This document shows, piece after piece, positions 4,738-63,754 of a DNA stretch of 64,000 nucleotides (the first letter of the stretch is position 1; every line of letters begins with the position of its first letter). The stretch spans positions 1,860,001 to 1,924,000 of the forward strand of contig NC_070562.1 of NCBI RefSeq assembly GCF_026914185.1, given 5' to 3'. The DNA is from Puccinia triticina (lineage: Eukaryota > Basidiomycota > Pucciniomycetes > Pucciniales > Pucciniaceae). The translations under genes were made by a program, and so were the position numbers. The notes beneath the pieces were generated by a model. The model saw only the letters and a program-made list of their open reading frames with translations, was not told where the DNA came from and did not search any database.

Positions 4738-5405
4738 CAAGGAAATGATAATCAACTTGCTAACATGGTACTTGAGTTACTTTGAGAGAGAAACAAGGGA
4801 GGGCATAATTTGGATGCCCAACAGACATGGGCAACAGAGGTGGGATTGAGGCATGCTGGGGGTTACCTATGGGGCATCACCATCGACCATGTTGGACCCC
4901 GGTGCCTCGTCAGAGTTGTCCGTGGGTGGGTTGCTTGCGGCACCGCTGCAATCTGGATCAGCCCGATCTTCTCCCCGCTAACTTGCTGAAGGAGCCGGGC
5001 ACCATCGCAGATGAGTCGGGCGGGGCCGGCTTTGAAACCAAGTTGGGTCAAGTCGGCCTCCGAACTGCGTAAAAAGTAGGACCACAAAGTGATGTTTTGG
5101 TCCTGGATTAACCACCGGGTGTGGAAATCCTTGGCCAGGATCTGACAGTGCCGTAAGAAGAAAGCCATAGCGTTTGCTGCGGCCTCGCGGGGGGGGACTG
5201 AATTGCTTATCCAAGAATTTGTCAAATCAGGGGTACCTGGGGTGGAGTCTGCGCCGAGGTTCAGGCGGCCCAAGCGGGCCAAGTTGATAGGCGTGATAGT
5301 TCTCCGGGGTCCGGCGAGCGTGCGACGTGCATTCCCCATGACTGCAATTTCAGGGGATGACGGGGCTTGAGCGGGATGGTTCTGTGAAACTCCATAAAAT
5401 ATTAT

Positions 5406-5476
5406 GTGTCCTATGGGAGTTGAACCCATGTCTCTTATATCCATGTTAAGTGTACTAACCACTGTACTAAGGACGC
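5406..5476 (-). ncRNA. tRNA-like cloverleaf inside the first LTR
   Basis: On the minus strand 71 nt fold as a tRNA: acceptor stem GCGTCCT with AGGACAC (6 of 7 pairs), D stem GTAC/GTAC, anticodon stem with 4 of 5 pairs, and T stem ATGGG/CCCAT. TAGTACAGTGG matches the pol III A box and GTTCAACTC the B box with no mismatch, 33 nt apart. A TTTT lies a few bases downstream, still inside the LTR. The anticodon loop reads CATGGAT, so position 33 is A instead of the near-universal T. A charged, decoding tRNA is therefore doubtful; a pol III promoter or transcript is the simpler reading. Confidence 0.7.
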
Positions 5477-5687
5477 TTGGATATGAATAGCTTCAGGTGG
5501 GTCAATGAACATCCACTGGTGTCACATGAAGATCCCTAATTGAGGGGAAGACCCGTAAATGACAGGTCATGAATGAGTGACACCAGCAGGTATGATAAAG
5601 CTAAGAGTAGCAGAACCACAACCTGACAGCCCCCCGTGCTATGAAAGGGGTTTATCATACCAAGACTCCATAATATCCTAGGTATCA

Positions 5688-5711
5688 CGCGGTAGCGCTG
5701 GGCTCATAACC
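5688..5711 (-). promoter_or_regulatory. Primer binding site complementary to the 5' half of tRNA-Met
   Basis: The plus strand here reads like a tRNA D-arm and anticodon arm, with GGTAGCGCTGGGCTCATAACC-type order and a CTCATAA loop; it ends directly at the LTR starting at 5712. On the minus strand this gives a primer site that pairs with the internal (5' half) part of a methionine tRNA. Drosophila copia and yeast Ty5 are known to use such half-tRNA-iMet priming. The G-run at the other end of the 83-bp interior (5630-5635 on the minus strand) suits a polypurine tract. Confidence 0.6.
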
Positions 5712-5734
5712 TGTGAAACTCCATAAAATATTAT

Positions 5735-5805
5735 GTGTCCTATGGGAGTTGAACCCATGTCTCTTATATCCATGTTAAGTGTACTAACCACTGTACTAAG
5801 GACGC
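5735..5805 (-). ncRNA. tRNA-like cloverleaf inside the second LTR
   Basis: Identical to the copy in the other LTR, 329 bp downstream, with the same A box, B box, stems and A33 loop. Both LTR copies retain the structure intact, as expected from copying one template during reverse transcription. Confidence 0.7.
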
Positions 5806-7379
5806 TTGGATATGAATAGCTGCAGGTGGGTCAATGAACATCCACTGGTGTCACATGAAGATCCCTAATTGAGGGGAAGACCCGTAAATGACAGGTCATG
5901 AATGAGTGACACCAGCAGGTATGATAAAGCTAAGAGTAGCAGAACCACAACCTGACAGGTTCCCTCCACGGATGTGCTCAATCGAAGCGGCGATAGATGA
6001 GGCAGTGGAGGAACCGGTTTTGAGTCCTCCTACGTCCGCATGGTTGGGTGCCTCTGCGTCTTGTCGGGCCTGACTCATCAAACAAAACATGCGGGTAAAT
6101 GGCGATGAAGTACAAGCCCGGGGTTGTCTGAGGGGAACTGAAGCCTCAGATGAGGGACTTGCCTCGGGGGGATTGGTGACCGGCGCACGGATCACATCCT
6201 GGGCAGGCAACAAGTTGGGCGTGCCCGAGGTGGATCCACCTCCTTGGAATGTGCGGGAAGCCGGGGATCCGGCGCTCAGAGTTGGCGCAGCTTTCCTCTT
6301 CGGGGTACTTGGGGAGATCCAGGCAAACAGGGGGGTATCTGGGGGGTTGTTGAGCGTGACTGAAGGGTCGGGGCCATTGAGCTTACGGGCCCACCCCCAA
6401 AAGACCTTGTGGCTGAGCTCAATATATCGGCCATCCCCGGAGGGGTGCATCGCCACCTCGCCCTCTTTTGGCGGAGCCCGGCGCTCATCGTGCATCGCCA
6501 AATGATGGTTCCGGAGCAGCTGCACCTTCTCAGTGCCAGGTTCGGCAATCTGAGCATTGGGCTGCAAGTGATATGAATTTCAGCCGTGGTGAAAAGACCA
6601 AAAGGACAAAAACAGCTCACATTTGCCGCAAGCCAAGCTCGTTGATGTTCGAGCGGAGCCCTCTCTGCATCCGTGCCGTGTTGCATGATCAGGCGCGCGT
6701 TACACTACCAAGATGGATGAATTTGGGATGTCGTATATTGATCAATATAGCGTATATTGATCAATTCATATTGATCAATTTTTTTTTTTTTTTTATTATT
6801 CCTCTTGATACCTTTGTCTGTTTTCCATGTCTCCTTGATACTATTCTATAATCTCTCTCCTTCTGCCTGTGTTAGCTTCAAGCCACAGGAATTCTTTCTT
6901 TCTTTTGCCTGATAGCATTTATAAATTTCTACATACACCACTCAATTCTTCCTGAAAAAAAGACGTTGCAAGTTTTAGGATTAATCCAGGGTAGCTGTGG
7001 GGTCTCAAATTTTTTTTCTTTTTTTTTTTACTTCAACAATTGATGTTATCAGAAGTCTCCAAATCAACTTTTTTTCAAAAGAGGAAAAACATTGACCCCT
7101 GACCTCTCTCATGATACCATCCTGCACACATTTTTAATTTGGCTGGTTGAACTTGCTCAAGATATTGCATATCATACTTGAAGTGCTACATGCATAGAAG
7201 GCCTTTTTGAAATTAGTTTACCATGGTTTAGCATATTTTTGTCAGGTTCTTTTTTTTATCTACTTTTGTCATCAACCACAGATTAATGAGGAATATTTCC
7301 ATATAAAATTTCATTGGACAATTTTTCTGCATATAAAACCCAGGAATATTTTAAAATATAATTTATTTGGGGTCGCATC

Positions 7380-10300
7380 CATTATGCAGCAGCAACGATG
7401 TGATCAGTTCCCAAATATCACTAATTTGGTAGTTTCTGGCCCTTTCTGCCACTATATCTCAACACAGCGTGGGAGTTCTTCCATGATATTGGTATCAAAA
7501 TGATCAATAGCCCCCAAGGATTCATTTTTTACCTTAAATTACCACATAACGCAAATGTAGCAGCTACAATCTGATCAGTTGCCAAATGTCACTAATTTGG
7601 TAGTTTCTTGGTGTTGCTGCCACTATATCTAAACACAGCCTGGGAGTTCTTCCATGATATTGGTATCATAATGATCAATAGCCACCAAGGATTCATTGTG
7701 TACCTTAAATGACCACAAAACCTTCAAATGTAGCAGCTATAATCTGACGAGTTGCCAAATCTCACTAATTTGGTAGTTTCTTGGTGTTTCTGCCACTATA
7801 TCTCAGCGCAGCATGGGAGTTCTTCCATGATATTGGTACCAAGATGATCAAATGCCCTCAAAGATTGATTGAGTACCTCCAATGAGCCCAAAACCCCCAA
7901 TTGTAGCAGGCACAATGTGATCAGTTGCCAAATATCACTAATTTGGTAGTTTCTTGGTGTTTCTGCCACTATATCTCAGCGCAGCATGGGAGTTCTTCAA
8001 TGATATTGGTACCAAAGTGATCAAATGCCCCTGAAGATTCATTTGGTACCTTGAATGACCACAAAACCCCCAAATGTAGCAGCCACAATGTGATCAGTTG
8101 CCAAATATCACTAATTTGGTAGTTTCTCGGTGTTTCTGCCACTATATCTCAGCGCAGCATGGGAGTTATTCCATTATATTGGTACCAAAATGATCAAAAA
8201 CCCTCAAACATTCATTGAGTACCTTGGATGACCACAAAACCCCCAAATGTAGCAGCCACAATGTGATCAGTTGCAAAATATCACTAATTTGGTAGTTTCT
8301 TGGTGTTTCTACCACTATATCTCAGTGCACCATGGGAGTTCTTACATGATATTGGTACCATAATGATCAGATGCCCTCAAAGATTCATTTTGTACCTCCA
8401 ATGACCACAAAACCCCAAATGTAGCAGCTACAATGTGATCAGTTGCCAAATATCACTAATTTGGTAGTTTCTTGGTGTTTCTGCCACTATATCTCAGCGC
8501 AGCATGGAAGTTCTTCTATGATATTGGTACCAAAATGATCACATGTCCTCGAAAATTCATTGAGTACCTTGGATGACCACAAAGCCCCCAAATGTAGCAG
8601 CCACAATGTGATAAGTTGACGAATATCACTAATTTGGTAGTTTCTTGATGTTTCTGCCACTATATCTCAGCACAGCGTGGGAGTTCTTCCATGATATTTG
8701 AACCAAAATAATCAAATTCCCTCAAGCATTCATTGGATACCTTGGATGACCACAAAACCCCCAAATGTAGCAGCCACAATGTGATCAGTTGCCAAATATC
8801 AATAATTTGGTAGTTTCTTGGTGTTTCTGCCACTATATCTCACGCCAGCATGGGAGTTCTTCCATGATATTGGTACCAAAATGATCAAATAGCCCTGAAG
8901 ACTTATTGTGTACCTTGGATGACCACAAAACCCCCAAATGTAGCAGCCACAAGGTGATCAGCTGGCAAGTGTTCTAATTTGGTAGTTTCTTGGTTTTCTG
9001 CCGCTATATCTCAGCGCAGCATGGGAGTTCTTCCATGATATTGGGACCACAATGATCAAAGGGCCCTGAAGATTTATTTTGTACCTTGGATGACCACAAA
9101 ACCCCCAAATGTAGCAGCCACAATGTGATCAGTTGACGAATATCACTAATTTGGTAGTTTCTTGATGTTTCTGCCACTATATCTCAGCACAGCATTGGGG
9201 TTCTTCCATGATATTTGTGCCAAAATGATCACATGGCCCTGAAGATCCATTGTGTACCTTGAATGACCACCAAACCCCCGAATGTAGCAGCCACAATGTG
9301 ATCAGTTGGCAAATGTTCTAATTTGGTAGTTTCTTGGTGTTTCTGCCACTATATCTCAGCGCAGCATAGGAGTTCTTCCATAATATTGGAACCAAGATGA
9401 TCAAATGCCCTCAAACATTCATTGAGTACCTTGGATGACCACAAAACCCCCAAATGTAGCAGCCACAATGTGATCAGTTGCCAAATATCACTAATTTGGT
9501 AGTTTCTTGATGTTTCTGCCAGTTTATCTCAGCCCCGCGTGGGAGTTCTTCCATGATATTGGTACCAAAATTATCATATGCCCCTGAAGATTCATTTCGT
9601 ACCTTGAATGACCACAAAACCCCCAAATGTAGCAGCCACATTGTGATCAGTTGCCAAATATCACTAATTTGATAGTTTCTTGGTGTTTCTGCCACTATAT
9701 CTCAGCGCAGCGTGGGAGTTCTTCCATGATATTGGTACCAAAATGATCAAATTGCCCTGAAGATTAATTTTGTACCTTGGATGACCACAAAACCCCCAAA
9801 TTTAGCAGCCACAATGTGATCAGTTGGCAAATGTTCTAATTTGGTAGTTTCTTGGTGTCTCTGCCACTATATCTCAGCGCAGCATGGGAGTTCTTCCATG
9901 ATATTGGTACCAAATTGATCACATCCCCTCAAACATTCATTTTGTACCTTGGATGACCACAAAACCCCCAAATGTAGCAGCCACAATGTGATCAGTTGCC
10001 AAATATCACTAATTTGGTAGTTTCTTGGTGTTTCTGCCACTATATCTCAGCGCAGCATGGCAATTCTTCCATGATGTTGGTACCAAAATGATCAAATGGC
10101 CCTGAAGATTCATTATGTACCTTGGATGACCACAAAACCCCCAAATGTAGCAGCCACAATGTGATCAGTTGCCAGATATCACTAATTTGGTAGTTTCTTG
10201 GTGTTTCTGCCAATATATCTCAGGCCAGCATGGGAGTTCTTCCATGATATTGGTACCAAAATGATCAAACGGCCCTGAAGATTCATTGTGTACCTTGGAT

Positions 10301-11918
10301 GACCACAAAACCCCCAAATTTAGCAGCCACAATGTGATCAGTTGCCAAATATCACTAATTTGGTAGTTTCTTTGTGTTTCTGCCACTATATCTCAGGACA
10401 GAATGGCAGTTCTTCCATGATATTGGTACCAAAATGATCAAATGGCCCTGAAGATCCATCGTCTACCTTGGATGACTACCAAACCCCCAAATTTAGCAGC
10501 CACAATGTGATCAGTTGCCAAATATCACTAATTTGGTAGTTTCTTGGTGTTTCTGCCACTATATCTCAGCGCAGCATGGGAATTCTTCCATGATATTGGT
10601 ACCACAATGATCAAAGGGCCCTGAAGATTCATTATGTACCTTGGATGACCACAAAACCCCCAAATTTAGCAGCCACAATGTGATCAGTTGCCAAATATCA
10701 CTAATTTGGTAGTTTCTTGGTGTTTCTGCCACTATATCTCAGGCCAGCATGGGAGTTCTTCCATGATATTGGTACCAAAATGATCAAATGGCCCTGAAGA
10801 TTCATTGTGTACCTTGGATGACCACCAAACCCCCAAATTTAGCAGCCACAATGTGATCAGTTGGCAAATGTTCTAATTTGGTAGTTTCTTGGTGTCTCTG
10901 CCACTATATCTCAGCGCAGCATGGGAGTTCTTCCATGATATTGGTACCAAAATGATCACATCCCCTCAAACATTCAATTTGTACCTTGGATGACCACAAA
11001 ACCCCCAAATGTAGCAGCCACAATGTGATCAGTTGCCAAATATCACTAATTTGGTAGTTTCTTGGTGTTTCTGCCACTATATCTCAGCGCAGCATGGGAA
11101 TTCTTCCATGATATTGGTACCAAAATGATCAAATGGCCCTGAAGATTCATTATGTACCTTGGATGACCACAAAACCCCCAAATGTAGCAGCCAGAATGTG
11201 ATCAGTTGCCAAATATCACTAATTTGGTAGTTTCTTGGTGTTTCTGCCACTATATCTCAGGCCAGAATGGGAGTTCTTCCATGATATTGGTACCAAAATG
11301 ATCACATGCCCTCAAGCATTAATTGGGTACCTTGCATGACCACAAAACCCCAAAATGTAGCAGCCACAATGGGATCAGTTGCCAAATATCACTAATTTGG
11401 TAGTTTCCTGGTGTTTCTGCCACTATATCTCAGCGCAGCATGGGAGTTCTTCCATGATATTGGTACCAAAATGATCAAATGGCCCTGAAGATCCATGGTG
11501 TACCTTGGATGACCACCAAACCCCCAAATTTAGCAGCCACAATGTGATCAGTTGGCAAATGTTCTAATTTGGCAGTTTCTTGGTGTTTCTGCCACTATAT
11601 CTCAGCGCAGGATAGGAGTTCCTTCATGATATTGGTACCAAGATGATCAGATGCCCTCGAACATTCATCGAGTCCCTTGGATGACCACAAAACCCCCAAA
11701 TTTAGCAGCCACAATGTGATCAGTTGCCAAATATCACTAATTTGGTAGTTTCTTGGTGTTTCTGCCACTATATCTCGGTGCAGCATAGGAGTTCTCCCAT
11801 GATATTGGTACCAAAATGATCAAATGCCCTCAAAGATAAATTGTGTACCTTGAATGACCACAAAACCCCCAAATGTAGCAGCTACAATGTGAATGGTTGC
11901 CAAATATCACTAATTTGG
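7380..11918 (+). repeat. Left satellite array of the CACTA foldback, about 27 units of 173 bp
   Basis: The landmark GCCAAATATCACTAATTTGG recurs at an average spacing of about 173 bp from about 7408 to 11898, 27 times by hand count. Each unit also carries CACTATATCTCAGCGCAGC, CCATGATATTGGTACC and GACCACAAAACCCCCAAAT. Units differ by a few percent. Two or more variants (for example a GGCAAATGTTCTAATTTGG type) alternate in a higher-order pattern. Reading frames of 60-75 codons recur in the units and are not genes. Confidence 0.85.
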
Positions 11919-14345
11919 CAACTGATCACATTGTGGCTGCTACATTTGGGGGTTTTGTGGTCATCCAAGGTACTCAATGAATTTTTGAGGGCATGTGATC
12001 ATTTTGGTACCAATATCATGGGAGAACTCCTATGCTGAGCTGAGATATAGTGGCAGAAACACCAAGAAACTACCAAATTAGTGATATTTGGCAACTGATC
12101 ACATTGTGGATGCTACATTTGGGGGTTTTGTGGTCATCCAAGGGGCTCAATGAATGTTTGAGGGCATCTGATCATCTTGGTACCAATATCATGGAGGAAC
12201 TCCTATGCTGCGCTGAGATATAGTGGCAGAAACACCAAGAAACTACCAAATTAGAACATTTGCCAACTGATCACATTGTGGCTGCTAAATTTGGGGGTTT
12301 GGTGGTCATCCAAGGTACACGATGGATCTTCAGGGCCATTGAATCATTTTGGTACCAATATCACGGAAGAACTCCCATGCTGGCCTGAGATATAGTGGCA
12401 GAAACACCAAGAAACTACCAAATTAGTGATATTTGGGAACTGATCACATTGTGGCTGCTACATTTGGGGGTTTTGTGGTCATCCAAGGTACATAATGAAT
12501 CTTCAGGGCCATTTGATCATTTTGGTACCAATATCATGGAAGAATTCCCATGCTGCGCTGAGATATAGTGGCAGAAACACCAAGAAACTACCAAATTAGT
12601 GATATTTGGCAACTGATCACATTGTGGCTGCTACATTTGGGGGTTTTGTGGTCATCCAAGGTACGAAATTAATGTTTGAGGGGATGTGATCATTTTGGTA
12701 CCAATATCATGGAAGAACTCCCATTCTGCGCTGAGATATAGTGGCAGAAACACCAAGAAACTACCAAATTAGTGATATTTGGCAACTGATCACATTGTGG
12801 CTGCTAAATTTGGGGGTTTGGTGGTCATCCAAGGTACACAATGGATCTTCAGGGCCATTTGATCATTTTGGTACCAATATCATGGAAGAATTCCCATGCT
12901 GCGCTGAGATATAGTGGCAGAAACACCAAGAAACTACCAAATTAGTGATATTTGGCAACTGATCACATTGTGGCTGCTACATTTGGGGGTTTTGTGGTCA
13001 TCCAAGGTACACAATAAATCTTCAGGGCCATTTGATCATTTTGGTACCAATATCATGGAAGAACTCCCATGCTGGCCTGAGATATAGTGGCAGAAACACC
13101 AAGAAACTACCAAATTAGTGATATTTGGCAACTGATCACATTGTGGCTGCTACATTTTGGGGTTTTGTCGTCGTCCAAGGTACCCAATTAATGCTTGAGG
13201 GCATGTGATCATTTTGGTACCAATATCATGGAAGAACTCCCATGCTGCGCTGAGATATAGTGGCAGAAACACCAAGAAACTACCAAATTAGAACATTTGC
13301 CAACTGATCACATTGTGGCTGCTACATTTGGGGGTTTTGTGTTCATTCAAGGTACACCATGAACCTTCAGGGGCATTTGATCATTTATGTACCAATATCA
13401 TGGAAGAACTCCCACGCTGCGCTGAGATATAGTGGCAGAAACACCAGGAAACTACCAAATTAGTGATATTTGGCAACTGATCACATTGTGGCTGCTACAT
13501 TTGGGGGTTTTGTGGTCATCCAAGGTACACAATAAATCTTCAGGGCCATTTGATCATTTTGGTACCAATATCATGGAAGAACTCCCATGCTGGCCTGAGA
13601 TATAGTGGCAGAAACACCAAGAAACTACCAAATTAGTGATATTTGGCAACTGATCACATTGTGGCTGCTACATTTTGGGGTTTTGTGGTCATCCAAGGTA
13701 CCCAATTAATGCTTGAGGGCATGAGATCATTTTGGTACCAATATCATGGAAGAACTCCCATGCTGCGCTGAGATATAGTGGCAGAAACACCAGGAAACCA
13801 CCAAATTAGTGATATTTGGCAACTGATCACATTGTGGCTGCTACATTTGGGGGTTTTGTGGTCATCCAAGGTACACAATAAATCTTCAGGGCCATTTGAT
13901 CATTTTGGTACCAATATCATGGAAGAACTCCCATGCTGGCCTGAGATATAGTGGCAGAAACACCAAGAAACTACCAAATTAGTGATATTTGGTAACTGAT
14001 CACATTGTGGCTGCTACATTTGGGGGTTTTGTGGTCATCAAAGGTACTCAATGAATGTTTGAGGGCATGTAATTATTTTGGTACCAATATCATGGAAGAA
14101 CTCCCAGGCTGCTTTGAGATATAGTGGCAGAAACACCAAGAAACTACCAAATTAGTGATATTTGGCAACTGATCACGTCGTAGGGCTTCATTAGGGAGTT
14201 TCATGGTAATTTAAGGTACACAATGAATCCTTGGGGACTATTGATCATTTTGAAACCAATATCATGGAAGAACTCCCAGGTTGTGTTGAGATATAGTGGC
14301 AGAAACACCAAGAAACTACCAAATTAGTGATATTTGGCAACTGAT
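11919..14345 (-). repeat. Right satellite array of the CACTA foldback, inverted, about 15 units
   Basis: This is the same 173-bp unit in the opposite orientation, 14 to 15 copies by hand count. The switch occurs inside one unit, where CACTAATTTGGC runs straight into AACTGATCACATTGTGG, so there is almost no unique spacer. With 27 units on one side and about 15 on the other, the palindrome is asymmetric in length. Confidence 0.85.
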
Positions 14346-16062
14346 CAGATTGCAGCTGCTGCATAATGGATGTGACCCCAAAAACATTATTTCTGGGTTT
14401 TATATTCAGAAAAATTGTCCAACAAAATTTTATGTTGAAATATTCCTCATTAATCTGTGGTTGATAACAAAATTAGATAAAAAAAAGAACCTGACAAAAA
14501 TATGCTAACCCATGGTAAACTAATTTCAAAAAGGCCTCCTATGCATGTAGCACTTCAAGTATGATATGCAATATCTTGAGCAAGTTCAACCAACCAAATT
14601 AAAAATGTGTGCAGGATGGTATCATGAGAGGGGTCAGGGGTCAATGTTTTTCCTTTTTTGAAAAAAAAGTCAATTTGCAGACTTCTGATAACAGATCAAT
14701 TGTTGAAGTAAAAAAAAAAAGAAAAAAAAAATTGAGACCCCTCAGCCACCCTGGATTAATCCTAAAACTTGCAATGTCTTTTTTTCATGAAGAATTGAAT
14801 GGTGTATGTAGAAATTTATGAATGTTATCAGGCAAAAAAAAAGATTCCTGTGGCTTGAAGCTAACACAAGGGGAAGGAGAGAGATTATAGAATGGTATTA
14901 AGGAGACATGGAAAACAGAAAAAGGTATCAAGAAGAATAATAAAAAAAAATTGATCAATATAAATTGATCAATACACGCTATACTGATCAATATACGACA
15001 TCGCAAATTCATCCATCTTGGTAGTGTTAACCTCAGCGTTCTGGAAGGTACATTTGGAGGTCAGCCCACATATGAGAGACACGAGAATCATAATCAAGAG
15101 CTCACCTGAGACTCTTCCCGGGCCACTTGGGAGAGGTCGATGCACACCGCCTTTGCAGGGTAAGCTTGCTCCGCGGCCAATGCAAAAGGCGCCCAGGTGT
15201 TGTCGTCCGTGATTAAGTATTTTTTGCTGCACCCATAGACCCAATTGCCAGTTATGATTCCCGATTAATCCGGCTTGATCTGACACGGTTAATTCTTCCG
15301 CAAGGTACGGTCGCTCCGGGCCAAGAAGCTCGATGATCTCTGCCTTGGCCATGCCCCAGTCCCAGTTAGTTGGGACACACTTCCAGATGGGGAAGGGAAC
15401 CCTCGAGGTGGCCCTGGCGTATTCGCTCGGAGGGCGCCCGCTGCCGGAGCCCGCAGACCTCTTCACCACGGTCGGGACGTTGGACCTGAGCCAAAGCAGG
15501 TACTTGATGGGAATCTGGACAGGCACCCCTTTCGTTGGGGTGGGGCGGACCCGTCGGCTCCCATTGTTGGCCGGGGCTAGTGTGGACTGAGCAGGGGTCG
15601 AGGCCGGGTTGGTGGCTGGGACCAGAGCACAGACCTTGGCAGGCTGCAGCGGTCCGTCGTGGGCCTGTGCCATGGGTTGGCGGCCGGCTACGGTTCAAGC
15701 TCCAACGTCGGCCTGCGGCGGCGCAGGATGGCTGGCTGGGCTTGGAGCGCTTCCGAGGGCCAAAGGGGGGGCAGGGTCACCTGGCATGGCGTCATCGAGC
15801 TGGCCCATCCGGAATTGAGTGGGAATATCCCACGGATCAGCTTGGTCCCGTTCGAGCTGTTCAAACTGCGTTTTGGATACAAACTGCGTTTCAGCAACAA
15901 GGATTCAGTTGGGGGCAGACATGGTTGAGTTAAAAAAACTAATTGGGGGTTTTTTGTGACGGATTGGTATTTGGCAAACAGGATATTGATTGATTGGGTG
16001 TGCCAGAACAGGTTTTGGTGGGTGAGGGGGGGGTGATATGGACTGGTCATACTGGGCGGCTG

Positions 16063-16259: not shown

Positions 16260-16780
16260 TCGCCGAGGACACACAACCTCATCGACCAGGAGGGATTCCT
16301 TCCGGTCACCGGGGCTGTATCTCGGCGACCAGGAGGATACTATCTTGGTCACGAAGTTTGTAAAACCTCGGCGACCAAGAGGAAATGGTCCTGGTCGCAG
16401 AGGATAAATAAACTCAGCGCGCGACCAGCAGGTAACCTCCTGGTTGCAGAGGTTACCTCGCCGACCAGAAGGCAACCTATTGGTCGCCGAGGTTACCTCG
16501 CCAACCAGAAGGCAACCTCTTGGTCGCCGAGGTTACCTCGGCGACCAGAAACTAACCTCCTGGTCGCTGAAGTTACCTCGGCAACCAGAAGACAACCTCC
16601 TGGTCGCTGAAGTTACCTCGGCGACCAGAAGGAAACCTCCTGGTCGTCAAAGTTACCTTGGCGACCAGAAGGAAACCTCCTGGTCGCAGAGGTCTTATTG
16701 CAACCAGAACGGCTTCCTTCTGGTCGCCGAGGTCATCCCTCTTCGACCAAAAGGGGCCCCTTCCGGTCGCCGAGATGAGT
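16260..16780. repeat. Array of roughly 40-bp self-complementary units
   Basis: Units of the type GGTCGCCGAGGTTACCTCGG followed by CGACCAGAAGGNAACCTCCT repeat about a dozen times. Each unit contains its own palindrome (GGTCGCCGAGGT/ACCTCGGCGACC). The array is part of the hAT-type element and recurs at 39580-40250. Open frames through it (Pro/Arg/Ser-rich) come from the GC-rich repetition and are not genes. Confidence 0.75.
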
Positions 16781-17515
16781 TTCAAGGAGCGGGTATCTGC
16801 GCGGGTACCCGCCCAGGCCGGCGGGTACCCGCCAACAAGTGCGGATGCGGGTACGGATGTCAGGATCCAGTCAAAACAGGCCGCGGGTACCTGGGTGTGA
16901 CGGAGCCATCTCTAAGTGGATACACACTCCACTCGATGGCCGGACCAACTCATCAAGTGGAGTAGTTATCCACTCAATGACCGGGTTGGTCATTGAGTGG
17001 AGCGGGTATCAACTCAATGAACGGGTTGGTCATTGAGTGGAGCGGGTATCCACTCAATGACCCGGTCCGGCAATCAAGTGGAGTGTGTATCCACTCAATG
17101 ACCAGGTTGGTCATTGAGTGGAGTGTGTATCCACTTGATGACCGGGTCTGGCCATCCACTCAATGACGCAACCGAGTCATTGAGTGGAATGTGTATCCAC
17201 CCAATGACCAAGTGGGTCATCGAGTGGGGTGTATGAGTGTGTCCGATTGCCAGTGTTGGGGACTGCAAGTTGAGCGTGTACTTGACCCGATGACCCATGT
17301 TGACTGGCCATTGGATGGAGGTATGTATCCAGGTGATGACCAGTCATTGGAAAAGGTGCCGGTGTGTACACTTATGAGTCTAAATTTTTATGGTCCCTGT
17401 TGGATGACCAGAAATGGTTTATGGTAATTTTATGGCACAAATGTGCACCAGCAAGAAAGATTTTATGGGGTCACCAGGAGCCAAAAAGTCAATTGTGAAC
17501 CCCCCTAATGTCAAA

Positions 17516-23269: not shown

Positions 23270-23960
23270 TCCCCCTTTCATGTTCCCCTACCCCTTTCAA
23301 GTGCACATACTGATTTCATGTGCACATATCCCTTTTGTGTGCAAATACCCATTTCATGTGTATATATCCCTTTCATGTGCACACCCCTTTCATATTCACA
23401 CCTTTGCTGTGCATGCACCCCTTTCATCATGCATGCATAATGTTGAAATTACTCAGGTGAAAAGAATTGTGTGTTGTGGGATTTGAACCCACGACCTTCT
23501 ACATTCATGAGAGCTGCTCTTATACCACTGAGCTAAACACACAGTTGGTCTTACTGGTGATACCGCTTTCATGTGCACATATCCCTTTTGTGTGCAAATA
23601 CCCATTTCATGTGTATATATCCCTTTCATGTGCACACCCCTTTCATATTCACACCTTTCCTGTGCATGCACCCCTTTCATCATGCATGAATACCTCTTTC
23701 ATTTTTACATGCCCCTTTGATGTGTACAAACCCCTTTCATGATGTGTATGTAACCCTTTCATTTTCACATATCCCATTGATGTATAAATATCCCTTTCAT
23801 GAATACCCCTTACATGTGCACATACCCCTTTCATCATGTGAAAATATCCCTTTTATGTGTAAATACACCTTTTCACATTCCTGTTTCATGCGTACATATC
23901 CCTTTCATGTGTGAATACAATTTTGATGTTATTCCTTTCATGTGGAAATACCCCTTTCAT
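23270..23960 (+). repeat. CCCTTTCATGTGCACATA minisatellite
   Basis: Irregular units of about 12-20 bp centred on CCCTTTCATG fill the segment. A block of about 120 bp is present twice in nearly identical form (about 23314-23432 and 23564-23683), on either side of the tRNA-like sequence, so the tRNA-like piece lies between two copies of a local duplication. The open frames through it are products of the periodicity. Confidence 0.7.
23469..23542 (-). tRNA. tRNA-like gene with degenerate anticodon arm
   Basis: The minus strand gives a 74-nt cloverleaf: a perfect 7-bp acceptor stem GTGTGTT/AACACAC, D stem GCTC/GAGC, and T stem GTGGG/CCCAC with loop TTCAAAT. TAGCTCAGTGG is a perfect A box and GTTCAAATC a perfect B box. 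The anticodon stem (GCTCT against GTAGA) has only two or three pairs and the loop is CATGAAT, with A at position 33. By position the anticodon would be TGA, but the arm lacks the long variable region of tRNA-Ser. It is probably a tRNA-derived element rather than a decoding tRNA. Confidence 0.5.
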
Positions 23961-28445: not shown

Positions 28446-30531
28446 CTAGGGCGTGCAGCGGGACGTGTATCTGTGGACGCGGGCGGGCATGGGTGTGGTG
28501 GGTGGGGCAGAGCGCGTGAGCACAAGGGGCGGAAAGAGGGGGAGAGGAAGAGGACCGACCGGGGATACAAGGAGCATTCGCGGACGTGGGGGCGGGCTAG
28601 CAGCCACGCCAAGAACCGCTGCATCCATCCACAGACAATCAGTACACGAATAGGGGGGGGGACGGGCAGGGGGGGGGGGGGGGGGGACTGACTTCGACGC
28701 CGAGGCCGTATCCGCCGTGTTCGCAGGTCCCGTATTTGCGTTGGTCGGTGTACCTGAACGGAGGATCGTTTGAGTGTGGATAGGAACGAGAGGGGAGGGG
28801 AAAGAGACGGACCAGTAGTAGGGTTCGGGGGGGATGCCGGCGGCCTTGTAAGCGGCGAGGAGCTCGTCGTAGCCGGTCATGCGCATCGACCCGCCGACGA
28901 TCTCGCCGACGCCGGGCATGAGGACGTCGACGCTCTCGGTGAAGGCCTCGTTACCGGGGATGCGTTTCATGTAGAAGGCCTTGATCTCCTTGGGGAAGTT
29001 GATGAGGAAGATGGGCTCGCCGATGGTGTCGGTCATCAGCCGCTCGGGCGCCTCGGGGATGTCGTCCTGCAGCGTAAACGCCCCGCCCCCGTCCTCCTCG
29101 CTCTTCGTGATCCCGCGCTCGTTGAGCCAGTCGATCGCCGCCCGGTACTCCATCCGCTTGAACGGCCGGCGGGGGAGGGCGAAGTTCGGGTTCAGACTCT
29201 CGACTAGACTCTTGATCTTGGGCTCCTCCAGCAAGGTGCTGAGCGTCGAGCAGATCTGGGGGAGGGGGGGCTCTCTCAGAGTTGTCTCCTCGCTCGTTGT
29301 TTGTGCGAGCTCACTTACCAGTTCTTCGATGTGCGCGAGGAGCTCTTCGAAGCTGATGAACGCAAGCTCGCCCTCGAGATGGGTGTATTCGCTCAAATGA
29401 CGCCGAGTCTATCGATCGACCCTACATCAGCTTTAGAACGAGAGAGGGGCAGTGGGGGGGTTCTTACTTTACTTTTCTCGGCCCGGAAGCTCTCTTGGAT
29501 GCAGAAACAGTCGCCCAGGCTCGGCAGACAGGTCTCGAGATAGAGCTGGGAGCTCTGGGTGAGATAGGCTTTCTCGCCGTAGTATCCGAACTCGAACAAG
29601 GTCGATCCGCCCTGGGTGTTTGAGAGATGTATGTGTCAGTTTTTGGCGCAGAGGGTGTGTGGATGGATGGAGCAGTGACCTCGACTTGGGTCTGGACCAT
29701 GCACGGCGGGGTGACCTCGGTGATGGCCATGCGAGCGTACGATCTGCGGAAGGCGTCGAGGAGGGCTGCGCGGACCTTGAGGACGGCGGAGGCGGTCTCG
29801 CCGCGGATGACGAGGTGGCGGCGGTCGGCGAGGGTGTCAGGGGCGGAGTCCTCGGAGATCTGGTTGGTGAAGGCCTCCGCGTCGCCCGGGGCCCGGCCGA
29901 CGATCGTCCACCAGTCCGCCTGCAGCTCGTGGCCATCCGGGGCGCTCTTGCCCGCGGGCACCTGGACGATCTTGCCGGTGATCTGGACCGTTGATTCGGT
30001 GGTCAGGGTGAGGGCGTGGTGGGTCTGGGCCTGGAGATGGATGGATGTTAATCTTCTGGGTGGTACATCTTTGGGTTGTGTACGCACTAGTTTGCCGGTG
30101 AGGACGCATTGGATGAATCCTGAGCCGTCTCTGAGGACGAGGAAGATGAGCGACTTCTGTTGTCTGAGCCGGTGCACCCATCCGAACAGCCGGACTTTGA
30201 TGTCCCTGTTCTCTGTGGCCTGGTGGATCTTGATGCGTTTGGCGATGCCGGCGGTTTCGTGGAGTTCGATGGGGGCTTTCTTCTCTTCGCCGCCCTCGTT
30301 CTTTGGGGTGGGTTGTTTGGCTGCCTTCTTGGTCTGGATCTCGAGTGCCTTCTTGGCTCGTTTGAGTGCTGTTGCGCTCGGGGGCTGGTAGCCGTCCTGT
30401 TTGAGGAGCAGACAGTCGAGTGTGCTTGTCCCTCTTGCGGCGTATGCTCCGAGGATGGACTGGAATGGTTTCTGGGCTGTGCCGTCGCCTGTTGCGTCTG
30501 ATCCGTTTGCTTCGTCGATGTGTGCGGCCAT
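28446..30531 (-). CDS. Asparaginyl-tRNA synthetase, cytosolic
   Basis: Eight exons in phase: 30088-30531, 29680-30030, 29468-29611, 29319-29408, 28813-29255, 28693-28753, 28560-28618, 28446-28470, giving 538 residues, the usual size. The enzyme charges tRNA-Asn with asparagine using ATP. Residues about 110-200 form the OB-fold anticodon-binding domain ([20 protein letters not shown]). Class II motif 1 ([19 protein letters not shown]) spans exons 2-3, motif 2 is [17 protein letters not shown], and motif 3 is [16 protein letters not shown]. The protein ends [13 protein letters not shown], like the standard C-terminus. The last exon has only 8 codons including the stop. It is divergently arranged with the gene starting at 30780. 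A run of about 17 C in the sense strand follows the 5' splice site of intron 6. Codon third positions are strongly G/C. Confidence 0.93.
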
Positions 30532-39021: not shown

Positions 39022-40680
39022 GTCCAGCTGATACTCAGCTTTGGTACCCAGCTCATACTCAGCTTTTTTGCCCAGCTCATACTCAGCTTTTTCATGCAGC
39101 TCACTCTCAGAATTGGAATAAAGCCTTTTGAAGATTCCTTGCCCAGGTGATTCTCAGCTTTGTACTTGTCCTGGTGCAGCTGATGCTCAGCTTTGTACCA
39201 GTCCTTGCTCAGCCTTTTCCCTAGTTCTGTCCCAGCTGATGCTCAGCTTTGACCCAGTCCTGGGCCAGCTGGCCAGCTGATGCTCAGCTTGCTGAGTATC
39301 AGCTGACCCAGGCCAGGGAAAAAGATGGGAATCAGCTTGGACAGAACCAGAGCTGAAAATCAGCTAGACTAGGGCCAAAGCTGAGCATCAGCTGAGCCAC
39401 AGCCAAGACTGAATATCAGTTGTGCCAGGGTCAAAGATGATTAGAGATGGCTCTGTCACACCCGGGTACCCGCGGCCTGTTTTGACTGGATCCTGACATC
39501 CGTACCCACATCTGCACTCGTTGGCGGGTACCCGCTGGCCTGGGCGGGTACCCGCGGGGATACCCGCTCCTTGAAACTCATCTTGGTGACCGGAAGGGGC
39601 CCCTTTCAGTCAAGGAGGGATGACCTCGGCAACCAGAAGGAAGCCGTTCTGGTTGCAATAAGACCTCTGCGACCAGGAGGTTTCCTTCTGGTTGCCGAGG
39701 TAACTTTGACGATCAGGAGGTTTCCTTCTGGTCGCCAAGGTAACTTCAGCGACCAGGAGGTTGTCTTCTGGTCGCCAAGGTAGCTTCAGCGACCAGGAGG
39801 TTAGCTTCTGGTCGCAGAGGTAACCTCGGCGACCAAGAGGTTGCCATCTGGTCGGCGACCAAGAGGTTGCCTTCTGGTCGCCGAGGTAACCTCGGCGACC
39901 AAGAGGTTGCCATCTGGTCGGCGACCAAGAGGTTGCCTTCTGGTTGGCCAGGTAACCTCTGCGACCAGGAGGTTACCTGCTGGTCGTGTGCTGAGGTTAT
40001 TTAACCTCTGCAACCAGGACCATTTCCTCTTGGTCGCCGAGGTTTTACAAACTTCGTGACCAAGACAGTATCCTCCTGGTTGCCAAGGTTTTGTAACCTC
40101 TGCGACCAATAAGAATTTTTTCCTTCTGGTTGTCGAGATACAGCCCCGGTGACCGGAAGGAATCCCTCCTGGTTGATTAGGTTGTGTGTCCTTGGCAACC
40201 AGGTGGTTTTTTCTGGCTGCCAAGGCTGTAAAACCTTGGCAACCGGAAGGGATCAGGCTTTCCGGTTAAAGCGGTGGGCGGGTGTGGGTTGAATTATCTG
40301 GGTACCCGCCCACTTTTTCCCGGAATCTCAGACATCCGCACCCGCTGGCGGGTACCCGCCAGCGGATAGCAGGTACCTGCAACGGGTTCGCCGGGGCCAT
40401 CTCTAAAGATGATCATCAGGTGGCTGGTGCCAAAGCTGAGCATCAGCTGGGCCAGGGCAAAAACTGAGCATCAGCTGAGCTAAAATCTGAGCATCAGCTG
40501 GGCAAGGGCCAAAGCTGAGCATCATCTGGTTTTGTTACATTGAGTGCTTTGATCCTGACACCTGTCATGTGAGCCCTGGATGTGCTGTTGGGTAGGAGCA
40601 GCATTGGAGCAGTGTTGGAGCTGAAAACAAAGCTGCATCATGTCACTTGCCATCAGGTGACTACTTTTTTTTTCCTGGTG
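39022..40680. mobile_element. CAGCTG-rich foldback element, copy A, split by a hAT element
   Basis: The left half is built of CAGCTGATNCTCAGCTTTG units and the right half of their reverse complement, CAAAGCTGAGCATCAGCTG, meeting at about 39285-39300. A 774-bp copy without the insert is at 58047-58820. The two share the left border GTCCAGCTGATACTCAGC and a unique right tail of about 150 bp ending TTTCCTGGTG. The hAT element at 39442-40405 lies in the right half. No coding capacity. Confidence 0.7.
39442..40405. mobile_element. 964-bp hAT-type MITE with hairpin-unit array
   Basis: The ends are TAGAGATGGC and GCCATCTCTA with a perfect 8-bp duplication AAGATGAT (39434-39441 and 40406-40413). Copy B of the host repeat near 58460 has the unfilled site CCAAAGATGATAATCAGG, which confirms the insertion. 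The interior is an array of about 40-bp units with GGTCGCCGAGGT/ACCTCGGCGACC palindromes. Near each end lie GGGTACCCGC-type sequences. This is the intact relative of the split copy at 2229-16914. Confidence 0.85.
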
Positions 40681-61800: not shown

Positions 61801-63754
61801 AGGGAAAGAGAAGAGAAGAGAAAACAAGAGGAAAAGGGGATGAGACTTATATAGCACGGTAGAGAGAAGATGAACGGGCCAGGATCTCTACCAGCTAGGA
61901 GAAGGAAGGGACTCAGACTATACTCAGTGGATTATGCAATATTATGACAGATCTTGTGAAACCCCACAAGGGGTGGGGGTTTACAGGGTTTACAGGTCAT
62001 ACAATCAGATGGCAATTCATCCCATTGATGACCAGTCATCATATGTATTGATGCCCGGTCTATCAATGACTGGGCACCCTGTTGATACCGGTCCATCAAT
62101 GACCGTGCATCCTATTGATACCCAGTCTATCAATGGCTGGAAATCCTATTGATACCCAGTCTATCAATGACCAGGAATCCTATTGATACCCGGTCTATCA
62201 ATGACTGGGCATCCTATTGATACTCGGTCTATCAATGACCGGGCATCCTTTTGATACCCAGTCTATCAATGACCTGGCATCCTATTGATACCCAGTCTAT
62301 CAATGACCTGGCATCCTATTGATACCCAGTCTATCAATGACCTGGCATCCTATTGATACCCAGCCTATCAATTGAAGAAATTAAGGCCGGAGGCAAGTGG
62401 AGCGGGCAGAAGGAAAAAGATCAGCTTAGCCAATGGCAGACAAATAGTCTAAAAAGGGACCAAATAAACTTACTCAAAGGGGATAATGTGCCTTCACAGA
62501 CAAGACAGTGAGCGGTCTCAAGTTCACACACCGGAACAGGATGGACAGGACTGATGACTTGATTCCTATGAAGTCTGAGGTTTTTTTAGATAGACTAACT
62601 ACAAGATGGTCAAGTTGTGGGAACATGTTTGAAGACTCATAGTGAATAGGAAAGAAATATATGCATGAATGGGCTGTGAAAGACATGCAACAGTCTAGTG
62701 ATAGACAGAGAAGAAAGATTGGAGAGCGGAAACAAGTTCAAATTCCAACATCAATGACCAGTCATTGTATCAATGATTGTTATGTCTATGACCAGTCCAT
62801 CAATGACTTATCATTGCTAGAGTATATTAGTATAAACTGCAGGTCAACATGCTTTCAGCAGGAGGAATGCATGAGTTCATGCTGACTTACAAATAAATCT
62901 ATCACAAGTATGACTCAAGTTCCAAATGATTTCAGAACAGATTGCTGCTTACTTGCAAGTTGACATGGAACTGACTTCAGACAAGAATGACAAAATTATG
63001 GCCTGGCACTCTCTGGAGAGTGCAACTGATACCCCCCTGCCACTGGTGACCATTGGCTGGCATGCTGAGCAACACACCCCACAGCTCAGGGGTGCAAACA
63101 AATTTTCTGCTCCCTCTTAAAATTTGTGATAATACACAAGTTCTTCCCTGCAGGAAGGGACAGCTTTGCCGCCAGCCACAGCAAGCCTCCCACTAGGGGG
63201 GAGGATGGGGTTGTGTTAAGCTAAGATTCAGCCTAAAAATCACTTTGAAGCAATGAAATCACAGAGCCCTGTATAGAATAGCAGCAAAGGCATAACTTCA
63301 GGAATGAGATGGCATGAATCTCCTGGATGAACCCCTTTGATTGTTGGGCAACTTTCTTCGTCATCATAACAGACCAAGACACTACAATGGATCAAAAAAG
63401 GTAGATTTTCTTAATTCTCTACTCCCGCAGGGTTGACATAGCACATAGAGGCCCTTTTTCAGAGGGTCCCTGCGGGACGGCTCACCCCCTCCAATAGAGG
63501 GACTTGGATAAGCTAGTCACATTCATGCCTTCTATCTCTGCACCTCACACCCTACCGTAACTTCTTGGACCCAATCAAGCCTCTATTCATCTCTTTTTTT
63601 TTCTTGTTCTAACATATTTGAAAGACAACAACAAGATTAGTAGGGCTTCAAAGACCAAAAGGAAAAAAGGGCAAAAGGGCAAAAACAGGCATTTAAAGAG
63701 GTGAGAGAGATAGAGGGAGATCAGAAGAGAAAACCGCGTGTGATGAGTCAAGAT
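58821..63754. other. Long repeat-rich stretch without a supported gene
   Basis: 58840-59340 is diverged sequence loosely similar to 21600-22100 (CTTGAGGTCTTGA motifs, ACCAGT..GACCACCAC end). 59340-59780 is a GCATCATGTATCATGTCCGC minisatellite. 59950-60050 has an inverted GACTCCCA..TGGGAGTC pair. From 60060 to 62030 and from 62400 to 63750 I see no motif, splice structure or family match. Short frames there are taken as chance. Confidence 0.5.
62030..62370 (+). repeat. 34-bp minisatellite, about 10 units
   Basis: Units of CCCAGTCTATCAATGACC plus TGGCATCCTATTGATA repeat nearly without gaps. The last four are almost identical and the first ones diverged. The theme (ATCAATGACC, GGTC) recalls the TCATTGAGTGG and CACTCAATGGCC units at 1740-2220, 16915-17360 and 52190-52340. 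Confidence 0.75.

What the first reader, a model, noticed from the sequence alone, without database searches (positions are those of the whole stretch)
5383..5957. Miniature LTR retrotransposon whose LTRs each carry a complete tRNA-like gene
Seen: 246-bp LTRs (TG..CA, one difference), 83-bp interior, 5-bp target duplication GGTTC, and in each LTR a 71-nt cloverleaf with perfect A and B boxes and a TTTT just downstream. Known: Cassandra elements of plants are miniature LTR elements with a 5S rRNA sequence in the LTR; tRNA-bearing versions are much less familiar. Inference: RNA polymerase III may start transcription inside the LTR, and the tRNA structure may help packaging or priming by a partner element. 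One fixed LTR difference suggests recent activity.
Basis: partly seen in the sequence, partly recalled or inferred. Interest (0 to 1): 0.9.

Follow-up and report, generated by a model that had tools for sequence, protein, structure and literature searches.

The report
tRNA-bearing mini-retrotransposon fused to its helper
The window of this wheat leaf rust genome holds a tiny jumping element, of a kind published in 2024, whose repeats carry a tRNA-like promoter; elsewhere in the same genome related copies are fused to full-size Copia elements, which points to the helper that moves it.

Summary
In detail: 5383-5957 is a 575-bp LTR element with 246-bp LTRs (1 difference), an 83-bp interior, target duplication GGTTC, and a tRNA-like gene in each LTR on the minus strand, also the element's sense strand. 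Host: Puccinia triticina. The kind is published: Kojima 2024 (PMC10886601) named tRNA-bearing TRIMs Helenus and ties Helenus-5_PTrit to 123 tRNA-Pro-TGG genes in this species, almost certainly this family (Repbase could not be compared). Of 77 full LTRs, 71 are called tRNA-Pro(TGG). It is unlikely to be a working tRNA and is not the primer.

I found no report of the following. Three 5.3-5.7 kb elements have the TRIM's LTRs outside and, inside, a Copia gag-pol interior, one complete Copia LTR, then the whole TRIM interior. All three have 5-bp target duplications and outer LTRs differing by 0, 0 and 1 of 246. Of 38 TRIM-interior junctions found by one pattern, six follow a Copia-type LTR, all six different. 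A native Copia relative has its own tRNA-free LTRs. The join lies at the LTR/primer-binding-site boundary. Likeliest reading: TRIM cDNA primed synthesis on a co-packaged Copia RNA, making Copia the helper.

The parts
5378..5382 (.). target-site duplication GGTTC, left copy
5383..5628 (-). LTR (3' LTR in the element's sense), 246 bp
   Evidence: 1 of 246 differs from the other LTR (T at 5493 / G at 5822)
5405..5476 (-). tRNA-like gene (Pro, TGG) in the 3' LTR
   Evidence: ARAGORN; Rfam RF00005 52.2 bits
5396..5399 (-). TTTT, possible pol III terminator, 13 nt before the LTR end
   Evidence: LTR position 230-233
5629..5711 (-). interior, 83 bp, too short to code for a protein
5629..5640 (-). polypurine tract AGCACGGGGGGC, same 12 letters as in a native Copia
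   Evidence: native Copia C4:2405348-2410813
5698..5711 (-). primer-binding-site-like GGTTATGAGCCCAG, shared with Copia elements
5712..5957 (-). LTR (5' LTR in the element's sense), 246 bp
5734..5805 (-). tRNA-like gene (Pro, TGG) in the 5' LTR
5788..5798 (-). A box of the 5' LTR
5745..5755 (-). B box of the 5' LTR
5725..5728 (-). TTTT in the 5' LTR
5958..5962 (.). target-site duplication GGTTC, right copy

Best explanation
The window element is a non-autonomous TRIM of the Helenus kind (very probably Helenus-5_PTrit). Shown: structure, family, TSDs, and fusions with Copia. Inferred: its RNA, probably made from the tRNA-like pol III promoter in the LTR, is packaged into particles of Copia elements that use the same primer-binding site and polypurine tract, and is reverse transcribed and integrated by their enzymes. 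The fusions record this co-packaging. When TRIM minus-strand cDNA reaches the end of its template at the PBS, its 3' end carries the same sequence as the tRNA primer. It can then anneal to the PBS of a co-packaged Copia RNA and be extended through that RNA's U5, R, U3 and gag-pol to its own PBS. Plus-strand synthesis from the TRIM polypurine tract then puts TRIM LTRs on both ends. The product is TRIM LTR - Copia interior - Copia LTR - TRIM interior - TRIM LTR, integrated as one unit, which is what three loci show.
For: Family: 146 B-box-to-TTTT motifs genome-wide at up to 3 mismatches, reversed control 0; the places shown in the capped list all have 0 mismatches. 17 of 21 loci with two or more full LTRs have an exact 5-bp TSD and 3 more match at 4 of 5; 12 of 33 loci with one full LTR have exact TSDs. 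Fusions: C18:4089719-4095044 (TSD CTAGA, 0/246), C4:4763610-4768969 (TCAGA, 0/246), C6:1195842-1201588 (TTATT, 1/246). Pfam on the Copia pieces of C18 and C4: gag_2, rve, SH3, RVT_2; the C6 pieces match these proteins by tblastn. The internal Copia LTR is complete, starting TG and ending CA: 354 and 392 bp, and about 810 bp in C6 if it starts at the TGTGAC after its polypurine tract. The native relative C4:2405348-2410813 has two 535-bp LTRs and TSD TCTTC, no match to the TRIM LTR and no tRNA call, and its 5' interior begins with the same PBS. Fusions are distinct events: C18 and C4 proteins are 49-57% identical, while the 338 bp holding their TRIM interior and LTR are 99.4% identical. Six of the 38 TRIM-interior junctions that one pattern finds follow a Copia-type LTR end; the last 60 letters of these six agree at 42 of 60 at most, ungapped.
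Against: No transcript, particle or pol III data were seen. No native Copia at over 95% to the C18 fusion was found in this haplotype (best 88-89%). Three of the six Copia-LTR junctions have no TRIM LTR known at the far end: for C2:2448686 and C3:6432813 the stretch where it was expected (L113, L114) held none; for C2:133713 it was not looked for, and its own TRIM LTR matches for only 67 letters. The fourth TRIM-LTR-to-Copia start (C4:698699) had no partner end in the stretch tried. Recombination of a one-LTR Copia circle into a TRIM at the shared PBS gives the same product. A TTTT 13 nt before the LTR end should tend to stop pol III before the PBS.
Confidence: 0.6

Rival explanations
1. Circle recombination: a one-LTR circle of Copia cDNA (LTR next to PBS) recombined with a TRIM already in the chromosome, at the 14-16 bp of shared PBS.
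For: It gives exactly the observed order with one crossover and keeps the TRIM's TSD. Homotypic TRIM dimers also exist: C2:4731374-4732277 has three LTRs, 0 differences, TSD ATTGG.
Against: The homology is only about 15 bp. The outer LTRs of the three fusions are very young (0, 0, 1 of 246), but plain TRIMs are often as young, so this does not decide.
Confidence: 0.25
2. The TRIM is a deletion product of Copia elements that have always had tRNA-bearing LTRs.
For: The TRIM interior is fully contained in the fused elements, and deletion between their two PBS copies would leave a TRIM.
Against: The one native Copia examined has other LTRs without tRNA. The fused elements contain a second, complete Copia LTR of their own kind. 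One TRIM sequence sits on very different Copia elements.
Confidence: 0.05
3. The C18 fusion is itself a new autonomous element that moves with TRIM LTRs.
For: A frame of about 1445 codons is open across its two halves (inferred from coordinates); identical LTRs and a TSD.
Against: Single copy in this haplotype by the two stretches searched: the next best match is 88-89%. The six junctions found are all different, so no fusion has multiplied visibly. A pol III promoter is unlikely to make a 5-kb RNA (recalled; also argued in PMC10886601).
Confidence: 0.1

Closest known systems
Helenus, TRIMs with tRNA-like LTRs (Kojima 2024, PMC10886601; abstract, Results, Discussion, legends and tables read)
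   Same: Miniature element, LTRs with tRNA-like A and B boxes, PBS, PPT, 5-bp TSD in fungi, Pucciniales; Helenus-5_PTrit is tied to 123 of 128 tRNA-Pro-TGG genes predicted in P. triticina
   Different: That paper infers the Copia helper from PBS likeness and one interior match, and holds long LTR sharing with the helper unlikely; the fused elements seen here are not described in the parts read
Cassandra, plant TRIM with 5S rRNA in the LTR (PMC7215508 and PMC10853983, passages only)
   Same: Pol III promoter sequence in the LTR, no coding capacity, tandem copies
   Different: 5S rRNA, not tRNA; PMC7215508 calls its autonomous partners unknown
Template-switching complexes of Triticeae (Sabot and Schulman 2007, PMC1950507; whole text read)
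   Same: Three-LTR elements with flanking 5-bp TSDs and nearly identical outer LTRs
   Different: There, like elements join through the R regions and the model predicts chimeric LTRs; here a TRIM and a Copia join at the PBS and the inner LTR is wholly Copia-like
SMART, 292-bp grass LTR element (PMC3281118; search listing only, plus its mention in PMC10886601)
   Same: Very small non-autonomous LTR element, Copia helper suggested
   Different: tRNA gene in the LTR not mentioned in what I saw

Membership tests
Helenus | miniature LTR element without coding interior | tested here: met
   575 bp, 83-bp interior
Helenus | tRNA-derived sequence with A and B boxes in both LTRs | tested here: met
   in the family 71 of 77 LTRs are called tRNA-Pro and 71 of 77 have A box, B box and TTTT in order, 69 of 77 both
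Helenus | 5-bp TSD (fungal members) | tested here: met
   GGTTC here; exact in 17 of 21 multi-LTR loci
Helenus | PBS after the 5' LTR and PPT before the 3' LTR | tested here: met
   same PBS and PPT letters as a native Copia
Helenus | PBS complementary to the anticodon arm of initiator tRNA-Met (most fungal families) | tested here: inconclusive
   PBS holds ATGAGCCC; the host gene was not found; rests on PMC10886601
Helenus | identity to the Repbase sequence Helenus-5_PTrit | not testable with these tools
   Repbase not held; anticodon TGG, host and copy number agree
Helenus | pol III transcription | not testable with these tools
   no RNA data; not shown in PMC10886601 either
Cassandra | 5S rRNA sequence in the LTR | tested here: not met
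   Rfam scan of the window at gathering scores: three tRNA hits only
Template-switching complex | third internal LTR, flanking TSD, like outer LTRs | tested here: met
   three fused elements C18, C4, C6
Template-switching complex | LTRs chimeric through an R-region jump | tested here: not met
   inner LTR Copia-like from TG to CA, outer LTRs match the TRIM LTR over all 246 positions

The most novel reading that the evidence does not exclude
In particles shared by a pol III-type TRIM and its Copia helper, TRIM cDNA can replace the tRNA as primer on the helper's RNA through their common PBS, and leaves integrated TRIM-Copia heterodimers. Such fusions would be a general fossil record by which the unknown helpers of tRNA- or 5S-bearing TRIMs can be named.
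Probability: 0.45. Interest if true: 0.65.

Novelty: new variant of a known kind. Interest (0 to 1): 0.48.

Why it matters
The window element itself is a known type; the new variant is its fusion with Copia. The fused elements tie a tRNA-bearing TRIM to specific Copia lineages by physical linkage rather than by likeness of short signals. Helpers of such TRIMs were inferred (Helenus) or unknown (Cassandra, PMC7215508 passage). A search for LTR-of-helper / interior-of-TRIM junctions can be run on any genome. The family also explains inflated tRNA-Pro-TGG gene counts in this fungus, as Kojima noted.

Tried and rejected
tRNA gene inserted in one copy only: rejected, 71 of 77 LTRs are called tRNA-Pro. 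A functional tRNA-Pro: unlikely (A at position 33 in 76 of 77; two stem mismatches; weak fold). Source tRNA: of 30 host RF00005 loci compared on both strands the best shares 52 identical letters in a 75-nt gene (the first comparison had compared the minus-strand loci on the wrong strand); these 30 are the top of a list that scored 63 of 6857 candidates, so the parent gene may be missing. LTR tRNA as primer: rejected. Purifying selection on the tRNA region: not shown; singletons against shared variants, Fisher p 0.72; the boxes have fewer variant cells, but 21 of 192 same-shaped windows are as low. Host initiator tRNA: not found. Far ends of C2:2448686 and C3:6432813 (L113, L114) and of C4:698699 (L125): no TRIM LTR. 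Solved structures for the reverse transcriptase piece: none at E 0.001. Not in print: searches showed no paper on TRIM-Copia fusions in rusts; only listings, and the passages or papers named, were seen, and most subscription journals are not held.

Full report
Host. The window is C5:1860001-1924000 of a genome of 122.8 Mb in 18 contigs. The window's asparaginyl-tRNA synthetase piece has as best match a Puccinia triticina 1-1 BBBD Race 1 protein (93% identity over 80% of the query), and that cluster's longest contig is 8,063,893 bases, the length of C5. Two-nucleus assemblies of this species are listed at 244-254 Mb (PMC10977897, passages).

The element. Its sense strand is the minus strand: LTR TGTCAGG...TTTCACA, then the PBS-like GGTTATGAGCCCAG, 83 bp of interior ending in AGCACGGGGGGC, then the second LTR. 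The tRNA-like gene lies at LTR position 153-224 in the sense direction, and TTTT at 230-233, 13 nt before the LTR end.

Family. The search with the whole element scored 40 of 148 candidates and gave 46 matches; the LTR search scored 40 of 156 and gave 56. A 37-nt pattern from B box to TTTT has 146 matches at up to 3 mismatches and 0 for the reversed control. Of 56 loci given to the script, 54 held 77 full LTRs; the other two had none from end to end and were dropped. 71 of 77 are called tRNA-Pro(TGG) by ARAGORN, 2 another tRNA and 4 none; 71 of 77 hold A box, B box and TTTT in order; 69 of 77 do both. Of 21 loci with two or more full LTRs, 17 have exact TSDs and 3 differ at one base; of 33 with one full LTR, 12 have exact TSDs.

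The tRNA-like part. Most stem pairs are kept in nearly all copies, but hardly vary, so they say little. Pair 2-70 is C-A in 65 of 77 and T-A in 9; pair 31-39 is A-A in 77 of 77. Position 33 is A in 76 of 77; that working tRNAs have U33 is recalled. I found no significant constraint on the tRNA region. As a promoter it is well formed; as a tRNA it is doubtful. If pol III starts just before the tRNA-like part and ends at the TTTT of the second LTR, the shared R region would be about 80 nt; pol III would have to pass the TTTT of the first LTR. This is inference.

Fusions with Copia. Two pairs of hits lay about 5 kb apart. At C18:4089719-4095044 and C4:4763610-4768969 the outer LTRs are this TRIM's (0 of 246 differences within each pair; TSDs CTAGA and TCAGA). 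A third pair, C6:1195842-1201588, differs at 1 of 246 and has TSD TTATT. After the first LTR comes a PBS followed by Copia letters, not TRIM letters. The Copia pieces of C18 and C4 match Pfam gag, integrase, SH3 and RVT_2. The C18 frame appears open over about 1445 codons (coordinates); the C4 frame is broken. The C6 pieces match the other two by tblastn. At the 3' side a complete LTR of the Copia kind (354 and 392 bp; about 810 bp in C6 if its start is read rightly; from TG to CA, preceded by a purine-rich tract) is followed directly by the whole 83-bp TRIM interior and a TRIM LTR.

Native helper. A relative of the C18 Copia (88-89% at DNA level in the two stretches searched) lies at C4:2405348-2410813 with two 535-bp LTRs of its own, TSD TCTTC, the same PBS letters and the polypurine tract AGCACGGGGGGC. 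Its ends show no match to the TRIM LTR and no tRNA. So the one native relative examined keeps its own LTRs, as Kojima expected, and the TRIM LTRs of the fusions are best read as gained by recombination.

How many events. A pattern over the LTR end and the start of the TRIM interior has 39 hits; one (C1:4804419) is another element. Of the other 38, six follow a Copia-type LTR end (C18, C4, C6, C3:6432813, C2:2448686, C2:133713). The pattern was shaped on LTR ends already seen, so other kinds are missed, for instance the one in L084. The six LTRs differ: their last 60 letters agree at 42 of 60 at most without gaps; aligned pieces are 77-80% alike for C18 and C3, 78-83% for C4 and C6, and 79-84% for the two on C2. 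C18 and C4 proteins are 49-57% identical, while the 338 bp holding TRIM interior and LTR are 99.4% identical. Four TRIM LTRs run into a Copia interior (C18, C4, C6, C4:698699, seen in fetched DNA). The gag start at C4:698699 is 69% identical to that of the C4 fusion. For C2:2448686, C3 and C4:698699 the far end was looked for in one stretch each and no TRIM LTR was found; for C2:133713 it was not looked for, and its TRIM LTR matches only for 67 letters.

Mechanism. Plain nesting is excluded for the three whole fusions, because only one Copia LTR is present and the other side is a TRIM LTR at the PBS. Ectopic crossover between two integrated elements does not return to the TRIM. Two routes fit: TRIM minus-strand cDNA priming on the Copia PBS inside a shared particle, or a one-LTR Copia circle recombining into a TRIM at about 15 bp. 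I prefer the first because PBS annealing over about this length is what a tRNA primer does normally (recalled), because TRIM homodimers also exist (C2:4731374-4732277, three identical LTRs, TSD ATTGG), and because each fusion found is unique, as expected of a by-product. The young outer LTRs do not decide, since plain TRIMs also often differ by 0 or 1.

Known or new. The TRIM is a Helenus (Kojima 2024). Heterodimers by template switching are known from cereals (Sabot and Schulman 2007), but between like elements and through R. A TRIM joined to its probable helper at the PBS was not found in the searches.

Noticed in passing
7384-14364: A 173-bp satellite, 26.3 units then 14.2 units; the unit starts listed for the two arrays are reverse complements, so two arrays of opposite orientation meet near 11915.
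   Followed up: partly
1989-2228, 16421-17156, 39669-39986, 62046-62372: Several minisatellites with units of 34-41 bp (and longer multiples).
   Followed up: no
5516-5525 and 5577-5586: The LTR has a 10-bp perfect inverted repeat (CTGGTGTCAC/GTGACACCAG) in its U3 part; the whole LTR folds somewhat better than shuffles (z -1.83, 9 of 200 as good).
   Followed up: partly
L084 (C16:633300-634700): Another tRNA-bearing LTR-like stretch (ARAGORN tRNA at 623-708) is joined directly to this family's interior at 731 (96.4% identity): a possible TRIM-TRIM fusion.
   Followed up: partly
L074 (C17:635700-638800): A complex array with three full LTRs, further pieces and one TSD TCTTC at both outer ends.
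   Followed up: no
L115, L117, L118, L120-L122: One stretch with the same PBS core recurs at these loci; ARAGORN calls a tRNA-Ala(TGC) beside it in L117, like the Helenus-4_PTrit type named in PMC10886601.
   Followed up: no
L037 and L038 (C5:6640668 and C5:6593711): Two single LTRs 47 kb apart with the same near-TSD GGCAA/GGTAA: probably a segmental duplication.
   Followed up: no
28446-30531: Asparaginyl-tRNA synthetase gene pieces on the minus strand, probably with introns.
   Followed up: partly
23467-23543: A tRNA-Phe(GAA) call on the minus strand, 51.1 bits in Rfam; not checked whether it too lies in a repeat.
   Followed up: no
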